A stretch of DNA of 64,000 bases from an uncultured Cetobacterium sp. (GTDB lineage: Bacteria > Fusobacteriota > Fusobacteriia > Fusobacteriales > Fusobacteriaceae): positions 1-64,000 of the forward strand of contig NZ_CAMTIK010000006.1 in the NCBI RefSeq assembly GCF_947072685.1, written 5' to 3'. Below the pieces are notes generated by a model. The model saw only the letters and a list, made by a program, of their open reading frames with translations. It had not been told where the DNA came from and did not search any database. The stretch's first letter is position 1, and every line of letters begins with the position of its first letter. This document shows, piece by piece, positions 33,945 through 37,515 of the stretch. Made by a program: the position numbers and the translations under genes.

Positions 33945-35855
33945 ATGAAAGTAATATTACCAAGTGGAGATATAAAAGAATTTGAAAACAGTGTAAATAT
34001 GTTTGAAATTGCAAAATCGATAAGCAATTCATTAGCTAAAAAAGCTATTGGAGCAAAAGTTGATGGAGTAGAAGTGGATATGAGTTATATATTGGATAGA
34101 GATGCTAAAGTTGAACTTATAACTCCTGAAACAGAAGAGGGAGAAGAGATAATAAAACACTCAACAGCACATCTTTTGGCACAAGCTGTTATTAGACTTT
34201 TTCCAGAAACAAAGGTTGCGATAGGACCATCTATTGAAAATGGATTCTATTATGACTTTGATCCAGTTGAGCAGTTTACTGATGAGGATTTAGCTAAAAT
34301 TGAAGCTGAAATGAAAAAAATAGTAAAAGAAAATATAAAAATTGAAAGAATAGAGATGGTTAGAGAGGCTGCTATAGAGCACTTTAAAAACTTAGGAGAA
34401 AACTATAAAGTAGAAATTATAGAGAGTATTCCAGCAAATGAGATGTTAACTTTCTATAAGCAAGGTGACTTCATTGATTTATGTAGAGGACCACATGTAC
34501 CATCAACATCTTATTTGAAAGCATTTAAATTAAAATCAGTAGCAGGAGCTTATTGGAGAGGGGATTCTAACAATAAAATGTTACAAAGAATCTATGGATT
34601 TGCATTTGCAACTGAACCTCAATTAAAGGCACATTTAAAATTCCTAGAAGAAGCAGAAAAAAGAGATCATAGAAAATTAGGAAAAGAATTAGAGTTATTT
34701 TTTACAAGTGACTTTGGACCAGGATTCCCATTTTTCTTACCAAATGGAATGAAGATGAGAAATGTATTGACTGATCTTTGGAGAAGAGAACATGAGTTAG
34801 CTGGATATGAGATGATCCAGACTCCAATCATGTTAAATAAAGAGTTATGGGAAACTTCAGGACACTGGATGAACTATAGAGAAAATATGTATACATCTGA
34901 AATTGATGAGACTGAGTTTGCTATAAAACCTATGAACTGTCCAGGAGGAGTTTTAGTTTATAAACATGGAATGCATTCATATAAGGATTTACCTATAAGA
35001 GCCGGAGAGTTAGGAATTGTTCATAGACATGAATTTTCAGGTGCATTACATGGTCTTATGAGAGTTAGAAACTTTACTCAAGATGACGCACATATATTTA
35101 TGACTCCAGAACAAATCGAAGATGAAATTATAGGTGTAGTAAACTTAATAGATAAGTTCTATAGAGGACTTTTTGGATTTGAATATTCTATTGAACTTTC
35201 AACAAGACCTGAAAAAGCTATCGGATCTCAAGAGATTTGGGATAAAGCAGAATCAGCTTTAGAAGGAGCACTAAAAAAATTAGGAAGAGACTATAAACTA
35301 AATCCTGGAGACGGAGCGTTCTACGGACCTAAATTGGATTTTAAAATAAAAGATGCAATTGGAAGAACATGGCAATGTGGAACAATTCAATTAGACTTTA
35401 ACCTTCCTGAGAGATTTGATATCTCTTATGTTGGAGAAGACGGAGAAAAACACAGACCAGTTATGATTCATAGAGTTGTTTACGGATCTTTAGAAAGATT
35501 TATGGGAATATTAATAGAACACTATGCGGGAGCATTCCCTACTTGGTTAGCACCATGCCAAGTTAAAGTGTTGACAATAAATGACGAAGTAGCTCCTTAT
35601 GCCAAAGAGGTTGTTGAGTTGTTAAAAGCTGCAGGAATAAGAGCAGAGATTGACACTAGAGCAGAGTCAATAGGATATAAAATAAGAGAAGCAAATGGAA
35701 AATATAAAGTTCCAGTTCAATTAATCATAGGAAAAAATGAGGTAGAGAATAGAGAAGTTAATGTAAGAAGATTTGGATCGCAAGATCAAGAATCAATGAA
35801 TCTAAATGACTTTGTAAATATGATGGAGATTGAAGCAAAACCAAAATTTAATTAA
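33945..35855 (+). CDS. thrS: Threonyl-tRNA synthetase
   Basis: This is a class II synthetase charging tRNA-Thr. The 636 residues show an N-terminal TGS domain (1-60), the editing domain with HSTAHLLAQAV and LCRGPHVPST, and the catalytic core with MNCPGG, RHEFSGALHGLMRVRNFTQDD cut short here, and VHRVVYGSLERF, then the anticodon-binding domain. The zinc ligands (Cys in MNCPGG, plus downstream His) are visible. AAAGGAG precedes the ATG. There is no T-box leader: it follows lptD directly. A terminator follows. Confidence 0.97.
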   Translation: MKVILPSGDIKEFENSVNMFEIAKSISNSLAKKAIGAKVDGVEVDMSYILDRDAKVELITPETEEGEEIIKHSTAHLLAQAVIRLFPETKVAIGPSIENGFYYDFDPVEQFTDEDLAKIEAEMKKIVKENIKIERIEMVREAAIEHFKNLGENYKVEIIESIPANEMLTFYKQGDFIDLCRGPHVPSTSYLKAFKLKSVAGAYWRGDSNNKMLQRIYGFAFATEPQLKAHLKFLEEAEKRDHRKLGKELELFFTSDFGPGFPFFLPNGMKMRNVLTDLWRREHELAGYEMIQTPIMLNKELWETSGHWMNYRENMYTSEIDETEFAIKPMNCPGGVLVYKHGMHSYKDLPIRAGELGIVHRHEFSGALHGLMRVRNFTQDDAHIFMTPEQIEDEIIGVVNLIDKFYRGLFGFEYSIELSTRPEKAIGSQEIWDKAESALEGALKKLGRDYKLNPGDGAFYGPKLDFKIKDAIGRTWQCGTIQLDFNLPERFDISYVGEDGEKHRPVMIHRVVYGSLERFMGILIEHYAGAFPTWLAPCQVKVLTINDEVAPYAKEVVELLKAAGIRAEIDTRAESIGYKIREANGKYKVPVQLIIGKNEVENREVNVRRFGSQDQESMNLNDFVNMMEIEAKPKFN

Positions 35856-35883
35856 AAAATAGACCTTAGGGTCTATTTTTTTT
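35856..35883 (+). terminator. Terminator after thrS
   Basis: Stem AAAATAGACC / GGTCTATTTT (35856-35865, 35870-35879) with loop TTAG, followed by T residues that lead straight into the next promoter. Confidence 0.8.
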
Positions 35884-35910
35884 GATTTTTACAATAAAAT
35901 ATGTTAAAAT
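35882..35910 (+). promoter_or_regulatory. Promoter of the preQ1-controlled operon
   Basis: TTGATT (35882-35887) and TAAAAT (35905-35910) with 17-base spacing and a TGT extended -10. It starts within the T run of the thrS terminator and predicts a leader of about 155 bases. Confidence 0.6.
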
Positions 35911-35940
35911 AAGGTGAATTAAATAAAAATCCATTTATAT

Positions 35941-35978
35941 GGTAGATGTTCGTAAACCTCCATCTTAAAAAAACTAGG
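35941..35978 (+). promoter_or_regulatory. preQ1-I riboswitch
   Basis: The short H-type pseudoknot of preQ1-I riboswitches is visible. P1 is AGATG / CATCT (35944-35948, 35961-35965), the loop TTCGTAAACCTC carries the conserved cytosine region, and an A-rich tail (TTAAAAAAACTAGG) supplies AGG (35976-35978) to pair with CCT (35957-35959). Ligand binding should fold the tail and change the fate of the downstream terminators. The two genes behind it fit queuosine salvage. Confidence 0.85.
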
Positions 35979-35995
35979 CTTAAACTATTAAGTAT

Positions 35996-36018
35996 AAGGG
36001 GTAAATTTACCCTTTTTT
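35996..36018 (+). terminator. First terminator of the preQ1 leader
   Basis: AAGGGGTA / TACCCTTT (35996-36003, 36008-36015) around AATT, then more T. ACCTC in the riboswitch loop (35956-35960) can pair with GGGGT (35998-36002), an obvious alternative fold. Confidence 0.75.
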
Positions 36019-36025
36019 AATTTTG

Positions 36026-36049
36026 AGCAGGGGTTTCCCTGCTTTTTTT
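36026..36049 (+). terminator. Second terminator of the preQ1 leader
   Basis: GCAGGG / CCCTGC (36027-36032, 36037-36042) with a GTTT loop and seven T residues, just 27 bases before the start codon of the first gene. Confidence 0.8.
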
Positions 36050-36075
36050 ATTTTTAAAAACTAGGAGAAATGAAA

Positions 36076-36780
36076 ATGGGAATTAGGTATAATAGAATTG
36101 AAAATGGGAACAGAAGAGAGATTGTTTTGTTAAAAGGGTATCCTTGCAAGTATGGGAAATGTAAATTTTGTAACTATATAGAGGATAACTCAACAGATGA
36201 GGTAGAGATTGAAAAAATAAATTTTGAGACTTTAGAAGAGGTTACAGGAGAATTTGAGGCCCTGGAGGTTATAAATTCAGGTTCAGTATTTGAACTTCCA
36301 AAATCAACATTAGAAAAAATAAAAGAGGTAGCTCTTCAAAAAGGAATAACATTAATTTATTTTGAAATATATTATGGATATAAAAATAGGCTATCAGAAA
36401 TAAGAGAGTTTTTCAAGGGGATAGACATAAGGTTTAGGATGGGAATGGAGACATTTGATGATGAATTTAGAATAAATAACTATGGTAAAAATTTTAAAAT
36501 CACGGATGAAGAATGTGAATCTTTAGGAAAAAAACTCTATTCAGTATGTCTTCTAATATGTGCTAAAGGGCAAACAAAAGAGATGATAGAAAAAGATTTA
36601 GAATTAGGATTAAAATATTTTAAAAGTATAACAATAAATATATTTATAAACAATGGAACAGTGGTTGAAAGAGATGAAGAGTTGGTAAAATGGTTTGTAA
36701 AAAAATATCTTTATTTACAAAACGATCCAAGAGTGGAATTGCTTATCGACAATAAAGATTTAGGAGTATTTGAGCAATAA
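36076..36780 (+). CDS. Radical-SAM-like protein, candidate queuine lyase (QueL-like)
   Basis: This 234-residue protein has a cysteine cluster GYPCKYGKCKFCNY (C24, C29, C32) in the place of a radical-SAM 4Fe-4S site. The spacing is CX4CX2C rather than the usual CX3CX2C. The rest fits a short TIM-barrel-like domain (EALEVINSGSVFELP, FRMGMETFDDEFR, KSITINIFINNGT). It is the first gene after the preQ1 riboswitch and lies beside a queuosine-precursor transporter. A radical-SAM enzyme, QueL, is known to release preQ1 from queuine in some gut bacteria; this gene is a good candidate for that role by context. The start at 36076 is preferred over 36070 because AGGAG is too close to the latter. Confidence 0.6.
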   Translation: MGIRYNRIENGNRREIVLLKGYPCKYGKCKFCNYIEDNSTDEVEIEKINFETLEEVTGEFEALEVINSGSVFELPKSTLEKIKEVALQKGITLIYFEIYYGYKNRLSEIREFFKGIDIRFRMGMETFDDEFRINNYGKNFKITDEECESLGKKLYSVCLLICAKGQTKEMIEKDLELGLKYFKSITINIFINNGTVVERDEELVKWFVKKYLYLQNDPRVELLIDNKDLGVFEQ

Positions 36781-36804: not shown

Positions 36805-37515
36805 ATGAGAAACGAAATTTTATGGGGAATAATGCTTTTGGTAAACTTTTTTAGTATAATTTTTATTTATAAAAAATTTGGAAAGTTAGGATTGTTTATG
36901 TGGGTTCCTATAAGTAGTATTTTAGCTAATATTCAAGTTGTATTGTTGGTTAATCTTTTTGGATTTGAAACAACACTTGGAAATATAATGTATGCTGGAG
37001 GATTCTTAGTTACAGATATACTTTCTGAAAATTATGGTGAGGATGAAGCTAAAACAGCTGTTAAATTAGGATTTTTTAGTATGATTGTAACAGCTATAAT
37101 AATGAAAATAGCAGTTTCTTTTGTGCCGAGTGCAGTTCAAGAGGGTGTTGCTAATTTTCAAAGTTTAAAAATGATATTTGATTTTATGCCAAGAATATTA
37201 TTTGCAGGATTAGTAGCTTATGGAATATCTCAGAGACATGATGTATGGGCTTATAAATTTTGGAAAAATAGATTTCCATCTAAAAAACATATTTGGATTA
37301 GAAATAATTTTAGTACATTGATTAGTCAATTAATAGATAACTTGATATTTACAACAATAGCTTTCGCAGGAGTATACCCTATGCAAGTTTTAGTAGAGAT
37401 ATTTATAGTGACATATGTTATGAAGGTAATAGTTGCGACATTAGATACACCATTTGTATATTTAGCAAGCTATTTAAAGGAAAATAAAAAAGTAAGTGAA
37501 AATATTTTAATTTAG
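36805..37515 (+). CDS. yhhQ: Queuosine precursor transporter (YhhQ / VUT family)
   Basis: This membrane protein of 236 aa has about six hydrophobic segments and the DUF165 signature (GGFLVTDILSENYGEDEAKTAVKLGFF, cut short: FLVTDILSENYG). YhhQ imports preQ0, preQ1 or queuine. It is the second gene of the preQ1-riboswitch operon, which fits feedback control of uptake by the ligand. GGAGAGATGAT precedes the ATG. A strong terminator follows at the stop codon. Confidence 0.93.
   Translation: MRNEILWGIMLLVNFFSIIFIYKKFGKLGLFMWVPISSILANIQVVLLVNLFGFETTLGNIMYAGGFLVTDILSENYGEDEAKTAVKLGFFSMIVTAIIMKIAVSFVPSAVQEGVANFQSLKMIFDFMPRILFAGLVAYGISQRHDVWAYKFWKNRFPSKKHIWIRNNFSTLISQLIDNLIFTTIAFAGVYPMQVLVEIFIVTYVMKVIVATLDTPFVYLASYLKENKKVSENILI

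What the first reader, a model, noticed from the sequence alone, without database searches (positions are those of the whole stretch)
35882..36075. preQ1-I riboswitch leader with two tandem intrinsic terminators
Directly visible are a promoter, a preQ1-I pseudoknot (P1 35944-35948/35961-35965; CCT with AGG) and two separate terminator hairpins (35996-36018, 36026-36049) before the first gene. Most preQ1-I leaders use one expression platform. ACCTC of the riboswitch loop can pair with GGGGT of the first terminator, which gives a simple on/off model. The second terminator has no obvious antiterminator. It may set a low baseline or respond to something else.
Basis: partly seen in the sequence, partly recalled or inferred. 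Interest (0 to 1): 0.7.

Follow-up and report, generated by a model that had tools for sequence, protein, structure and literature searches.

The report
PreQ1 riboswitch with weak–strong double terminator

Summary
Window 35939-35983 is a class I preQ1 aptamer (Rfam RF00522, 39.7 bits, just above cut-off), subgroup type I by sequence signatures. Two hairpin-plus-U-tract terminators follow, T1 (35996-36018) and T2 (36025-36049). The proposed mechanism is largely inverted. T2 is strong in all tandem leaders and has an antiterminator: the aptamer tail AAACU-AG-GCUUAAA pairs with UUUGAGC-AGG-GGUUU of T2. That pairing is kept, with covariation, in Cetobacterium, a sister genus and Propionigenium; a shorter version precedes the single terminator of several Fusobacterium. 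T1 lies inside the loop of this antiterminator, is weak in most relatives and is only weakly coupled to the aptamer. In three sister species that lost promoter, aptamer and T1, T2 alone remains and its tail complementarity has decayed. Double terminators also occur in 13 of 34 preQ1-I leaders sampled from Clostridia, and one dual-terminator c-di-GMP riboswitch (Bc1) is published. New variant of a known kind; function untested.

The parts
35854..35881 (+). intrinsic terminator of the upstream gene thrS
   Evidence: 12-pair stem and U-tract; thrS identified by four Pfam domains
35882..35910 (+). candidate promoter of the leader, TTGATT-17-TAAAAT
   Evidence: consensus scan (not above chance alone); same hexamers and spacing visible in Cetobacterium relatives
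35931..35942 (+). P0 hairpin CCAU-UUAU-AUGG abutting P1
   Evidence: such a hairpin abuts P1 in 23 of 35 Fusobacteriaceae and 28 of 32 Clostridia leaders, 2.3 and 2.6 expected, with different sequences
35939..35983 (+). preQ1-I aptamer, type I by signatures; P1 35944-35948/35961-35965, P2 35957-35959/35976-35978
   Evidence: RF00522 39.7 bits; UC before the 3' strand of P1, UU after its 5' strand, CUA in the tail (criteria: PMC11625349, PMC8752633)
35971..35984 (+). 5' strand of the T2 antiterminator, AAACU-AG-GCUUAAA (overlaps L3 and P2 of the aptamer)
35996..36018 (+). terminator T1 (weak), nested in the loop of the antiterminator
   Evidence: core -5.0 kcal/mol, score 2.7
36022..36036 (+). 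3' strand of the T2 antiterminator, UUUGAGC-AGG-GGUUU
36025..36049 (+). terminator T2 (strong)
   Evidence: core -10.1 kcal/mol, score 48.6; positive score in all 16 tandem leaders
36063..36067 (+). Shine-Dalgarno AGGAG
   Evidence: sequence
36076..36780 (+). queL-like queuine lyase gene (start at 36076 from conservation and SD spacing; the longest ORF starts at 36070)
   Evidence: PDB 6p78 queuine lyase, E 1e-58
36805..37515 (+). QPTR queuosine-precursor transporter gene
   Evidence: TIGR00697 214.5 bits, cut-off 50.95; PF02592

Best explanation
A transcriptional OFF switch. When preQ1 is plentiful the aptamer closes its pseudoknot and ties up its A-rich tail (35967-35978). The tail then cannot pair with the 5' arm and loop of T2, T2 forms, and RNA polymerase stops before queL-QPTR. 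When preQ1 is scarce the tail AAACU-AG-GCUUAAA pairs with UUUGAGC-AGG-GGUUU around the T1 hairpin and T2 is pre-empted long enough for read-through. T1 is a leaky accessory terminator or pause element in the loop of that antiterminator: it trims expression and delays polymerase before the T2 decision. Shown by sequence and comparison: the aptamer, the genes, both hairpins, conservation of the pairing, T2 stronger than T1. Inferred: ligand dependence, direction of switching, the role of T1.
For: Tail x T2 pairing: -9.5 kcal/mol, reached by 14/1000 shuffles of the T2 arm and 30/1000 of the tail, and similarly rare (7 to 61 per 1000) in nine more leaders of Cetobacterium, its sister genus, Propionigenium and Fusobacterium. 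Inner helix GCUUAAA x UUUGAGC: covariation score 0.203 against 0.125 in shuffles (16/500 reach it) and below 0.15 in every slid register; four pairs have changes on both sides. The tail end AAACU pairs with AGUUU or GGUUU in all 12 leaders listed. Energy lost on aptamer closure is larger at T2 (-5.3 to -15.7) than at T1 (-0.1 to -3.9) in 16 of 16 tandem leaders, and lies below the shuffle mean for T2 in 16 of 16. T2 outranks T1 in predicted strength in 15 of 16. Aptamer-less sister species keep T2, but its match to the tail falls from -9.8 to -5.4. Precedent: in B. subtilis the A-rich L3 forms part of the antiterminator (PMC11625349).
Against: No expression or binding data. At equilibrium the completed T2 wins in the model with or without ligand (0.98 or more), so switching must be kinetic. 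For Cetobacterium alone the T2 coupling is only modestly beyond shuffles (z about -0.3 to -1.7). Three of the four doubly changed pairs change both sides only in Propionigenium, and the leaders are related. T2 survives without the aptamer in three species, so it also works as a plain terminator.
Confidence: 0.6

Rival explanations
1. One reading: T1 is the preQ1-controlled terminator through loop ACCUC x GGGGU, and T2 is an uncontrolled attenuator that sets a low baseline.
For: ACCUC x GGGGU forms in about half of the ligand-free ensemble at transcript ends 36004-36010 and disrupts P1; T2 persists without an aptamer in three sister species.
Against: T1 scores below zero as a terminator in five of eight Cetobacterium and most Psychrilyobacter; its coupling is no stronger than shuffles; T2 has a conserved antiterminator.
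Confidence: 0.15
2. Double checkpoint: T1 and T2 are both ligand-gated by the one aptamer, one after the other, giving a second window for preQ1 to bind and a tighter OFF state.
For: Both 5' arms carry loop complements in the window species (ACCUC x GGGGU and AAACCUC x GGGGUUU). In several Clostridium leaders T1 and T2 match different parts of the aptamer (AGAGGUUC x GAGCCUCU; CCAUCCC x GGGAUGG).
Against: Loop x T1 pairing is 3-4 bp in most Cetobacterium; 7-bp loop x T2 pairing occurs within the genus only in the window species and its nearest relative; swapping loops and T2 arms between lineages gives no clear native advantage.
Confidence: 0.2
3. The switch acts mainly on translation and the hairpins are incidental.
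For: Other type I preQ1-I switches studied act on the Shine-Dalgarno sequence (PMC11625349).
Against: Here the Shine-Dalgarno sequence lies behind two U-tract hairpins, 85 nt from P2, and no pairing of the aptamer with it was seen in the fold (that fold ends just before the Shine-Dalgarno).
Confidence: 0.04

Closest known systems
B. subtilis queC preQ1-I riboswitch (type II, transcriptional)
   Same: H-type pseudoknot aptamer; A-rich L3 tail forms part of the antiterminator; ligand promotes termination (PMC11625349).
   Different: Here type I signatures, two terminators, and the downstream genes are queuine salvage rather than synthesis.
C. difficile preQ1-I leader of queK-qrtT-queL
   Same: preQ1-I switch ahead of queuine-salvage genes including queL (PMC11477304).
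   Different: Other transporter family, no QueK in this operon; terminator layout of that leader not examined here.
Bc1 c-di-GMP-I riboswitch of the Bacillus cereus group
   Same: One aptamer followed by two intrinsic terminators 28 bp apart, weak then strong, with T2 dominant in vivo (PMC11218506).
   Different: Other ligand and aptamer; downstream genes of Bc1 showed no response to the ligand because T2 stayed formed.
Carnobacterium antarcticum type I preQ1-I riboswitch
   Same: Type I signatures (UU, UC, CUA) (PMC8752633).
   Different: That one controls translation and binds two stacked preQ1; ligand number here untested.

Membership tests
preQ1-I riboswitch (RF00522) | covariance-model score at or above gathering score | tested here: met
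   39.7 against 39 bits; a narrow margin, and most homologous leaders in the family score a few bits lower
preQ1-I riboswitch (RF00522) | P1 hairpin and P2 pseudoknot | tested here: met
   P1 5 bp, P2 CCU x AGG in sequence
preQ1-I riboswitch (RF00522) | binds preQ1 | not testable with these tools
   needs a binding assay
preQ1-I type I | UC before P1 3' strand, UU after P1 5' strand, CUA in the tail | tested here: met
   AGAUG|UUCG, CUC|CAUCU as UC then P1, and AACUAGG; criteria from PMC11625349 and PMC8752633
preQ1-I type I | two stacked preQ1 in one pocket | not testable with these tools
   needs calorimetry or a structure
intrinsic terminator T1 | stable GC-rich stem then U-tract | tested here: inconclusive
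   passes the scan in the window but borderline score 2.7, below zero in most relatives
intrinsic terminator T2 | stable GC-rich stem then U-tract | tested here: met
   score 48.6; positive in all 16 tandem leaders
queuine lyase QueL | homology to the solved queuine lyase | tested here: met
   6p78 E 1e-58 over residues 6-233, same cysteine spacing; activity untested
QPTR transporter | TIGR00697 above cut-off | tested here: met
   214.5 against 50.95 bits

The most novel reading that the evidence does not exclude
One preQ1 aptamer gates two consecutive terminators through different antiterminator strands (loop or stem strand for one, tail or loop for the other), a serial double checkpoint that has arisen repeatedly in queuine-salvage operons of Cetobacterium, Psychrilyobacter and Clostridium.
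Probability: 0.22. Interest if true: 0.65.

Novelty: new variant of a known kind. Interest (0 to 1): 0.42.

Why it matters
Dual terminators under one riboswitch are described as rarely seen (PMC11218506), yet this survey finds them in three Fusobacteriaceae genera and in over a third of the sampled preQ1-I leaders of Clostridia. With a natural series of one-terminator, two-terminator and aptamer-less relatives of the same operon, the question of what a second terminator buys a riboswitch becomes directly testable. It also supplies a likely transcription-terminating member of the type I preQ1-I subgroup, whose studied examples act on translation.

Tried and rejected
Loop x T2 pairing as the conserved antiterminator: 7 bp in the window, but 25/500 and 43/500 shuffles reach it, it is absent in most Cetobacterium, and a lineage swap test showed no native advantage. 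A second preQ1 aptamer between the terminators: none found in eleven tandem Clostridium leaders nor in the window. A second preQ1 switch in the genome: the weak hit on contig C24 looks like an ordinary terminator. QueC: only partial hits of 33 bits or less in the window's genome. The papers on QueL discovery, F. nucleatum preQ1 folding and preQ1 class diversity were not held.

Full report
What is there. The window lies in a Cetobacterium-like genome: contigs of its genus match, by length and content, public contigs named Cetobacterium. Between thrS and the next gene lie a promoter-like site, a small upstream hairpin, a preQ1-I aptamer, two hairpin-plus-U-tract terminators and a Shine-Dalgarno sequence. 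RF00522 scores 39.7 bits, just over its gathering score of 39. The same locus scores 35.6 to 39.7 bits in eight Cetobacterium genomes. A model built from Fusobacteriaceae aptamers gives 61 bits here and finds counterparts in most genomes of the family; that model was trained on the window sequence among others, so its score there is not independent. The aptamer carries the type I signatures given by PMC11625349 and PMC8752633.

What it controls. The first gene is a homologue of the solved queuine lyase 6p78 (E 1e-58). The second is a queuosine-precursor transporter of family TIGR00697. Tgt is present in nine of 12 Cetobacterium genomes including the window's own. The QueC family gives only weak, partial hits. 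The operon therefore looks like queuine salvage: take up queuine or a precursor, cut queuine to preQ1, and insert preQ1 into tRNA. A preQ1 switch on such genes is ordinary feedback and is already described for C. difficile (PMC11477304). From start-codon conservation and Shine-Dalgarno spacing the gene probably starts at 36076, not at the first ATG at 36070.

The two terminators. T2 is strong everywhere and T1 is weak. With a d'Aubenton-Carafa style score (formula from memory) T1 of the window gets 2.7 and T2 48.6. In the five Cetobacterium relatives L003-L007 T1 falls below zero while T2 stays at 41 to 45. An automatic detector finds both terminators only in L001, L002, L065, the sister-genus leader L013 and one Psychrilyobacter leader, and one terminator in the other 35 Fusobacteriaceae leaders. 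A hairpin followed by a U-tract at the T1 position is nevertheless visible in all eight Cetobacterium leaders, in L013 and in seven Psychrilyobacter leaders. Fusobacterium leaders have one terminator. Outside the family, 12 of 34 sampled leaders of Clostridia have two terminators and one has three; those inspected mostly precede a gene resembling queK, a nucleoside hydrolase, and no second aptamer lies between the terminators in the eleven checked.

Which terminator is switched. I folded growing transcripts with and without the aptamer's loop and tail blocked. The blocked state is a stand-in for ligand binding, since these programs cannot model the pseudoknot. In all 16 tandem leaders the energy that depends on a free aptamer is larger at T2 than at T1, and T2 lies below its shuffled mean in all 16. 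The effect is strong in Psychrilyobacter (z about -2 to -6) and modest in Cetobacterium (z about -0.3 to -1.7). Part of the T1-T2 difference comes from the longer transcript at T2, which is why the z-scores against shuffles are given. The structure responsible in most Cetobacterium leaders is the aptamer tail, AAACU-AG-GCUUAAA in the window, paired with UUUGAGC-AGG-GGUUU of T2, with T1 inside the loop. Such a pairing is matched by 0.7 to 6 percent of shuffles in each of ten leaders from four genus-level groups; these leaders are related, so the figures must not be multiplied. The inner helix covaries: Propionigenium has GCCAU x AUGGC in its place, and the covariation score is reached by 16 of 500 shuffles and by no slid register. 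In Propionigenium the T1-position hairpin has no proper U-tract. This suggests, as inference, that T2 with its tail antiterminator is the older platform and T1 a later addition in its loop.

Natural deletion. Three sister species (genomes G004, G005, G008) keep thrS and queL but have lost the thrS terminator, promoter, aptamer and T1, and have no QPTR directly behind queL; T2 alone stands between thrS and queL. There the match of T2 to an aptamer tail has dropped from -9.8 to -5.4 kcal/mol. T2 can therefore serve as a plain terminator, and its tail complementarity appears to be kept only where the aptamer is present. This may be a single event and so is weak evidence.

Loop ACCUC (35956-35960) can pair with GGGGU (35998-36002), and the folds show it in about half the ligand-free ensemble before the 3' arm of T1 appears. 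In relatives the pairing shrinks to 3-4 bp. The window species and its nearest relative also have a 7-bp loop pairing with T2, AAACCUC x GGGGUUU, stronger than with the other terminators of the window but reached by 5 to 9 percent of shuffles. A double checkpoint in which both terminators are gated is therefore possible and is kept as the novel case; in Clostridium some leaders show separate aptamer matches for T1 and T2.

Limits. No transcript ends, binding or expression data were available. Energies come from nearest-neighbour models and the bound state is a constraint. At equilibrium the completed T2 hairpin wins in either state, so control must be decided during transcription. Relatedness of the sequences limits all comparative tests. 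The literature search covered only openly licensed papers, so a description of this leader elsewhere cannot be excluded.

Noticed in passing
window 35931-35942: A hairpin (P0) directly abuts the 5' side of P1 in 23 of 35 Fusobacteriaceae and 28 of 32 Clostridia preQ1-I leaders (2.3 and 2.6 expected), with many different sequences, yet it is not in the 45-nt Rfam model. It may be the variable upstream stem of the original motif description (own memory).
   Followed up: partly
L014, L015, L017-L021 (Psychrilyobacter), aptamer about 1501-1544: These aptamers have loop UUCGAAAAAUC and tail ACCAAAG, so the usual CC x GG pseudoknot pairs seem absent although context and P1 are kept; ligand binding there is an open question. 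In these operons the transporter comes first and queL second.
   Followed up: partly
L044-L046 (genomes G008, G005, G004): Three Cetobacterium species lost the riboswitch and the QPTR gene behind queL; only a 54%-identical QPTR elsewhere remains.
   Followed up: partly
L064 and genome G009 contig C23:6650-7342: A second, 50-51% identical QPTR copy has in-frame stops in two Cetobacterium genomes and is intact in others.
   Followed up: no
L084 and L086, leaders of genus g3: Here the aptamer loop GCUAGC(C) is complementary to the terminator 5' arm (GG)CUAGC, up to 9 bp with flanks, so the expression platform differs between Fusobacteriaceae genera.
   Followed up: partly
L009:279-376 and L027:2273-2370, minus strand: Purine riboswitches in Cetobacterium relatives (67.9 and 56.1 bits).
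   Followed up: no
window 36070-36078: queL start is probably the second ATG (36076), conserved as MGIRY in relatives with proper SD spacing, not the first at 36070.
   Followed up: yes
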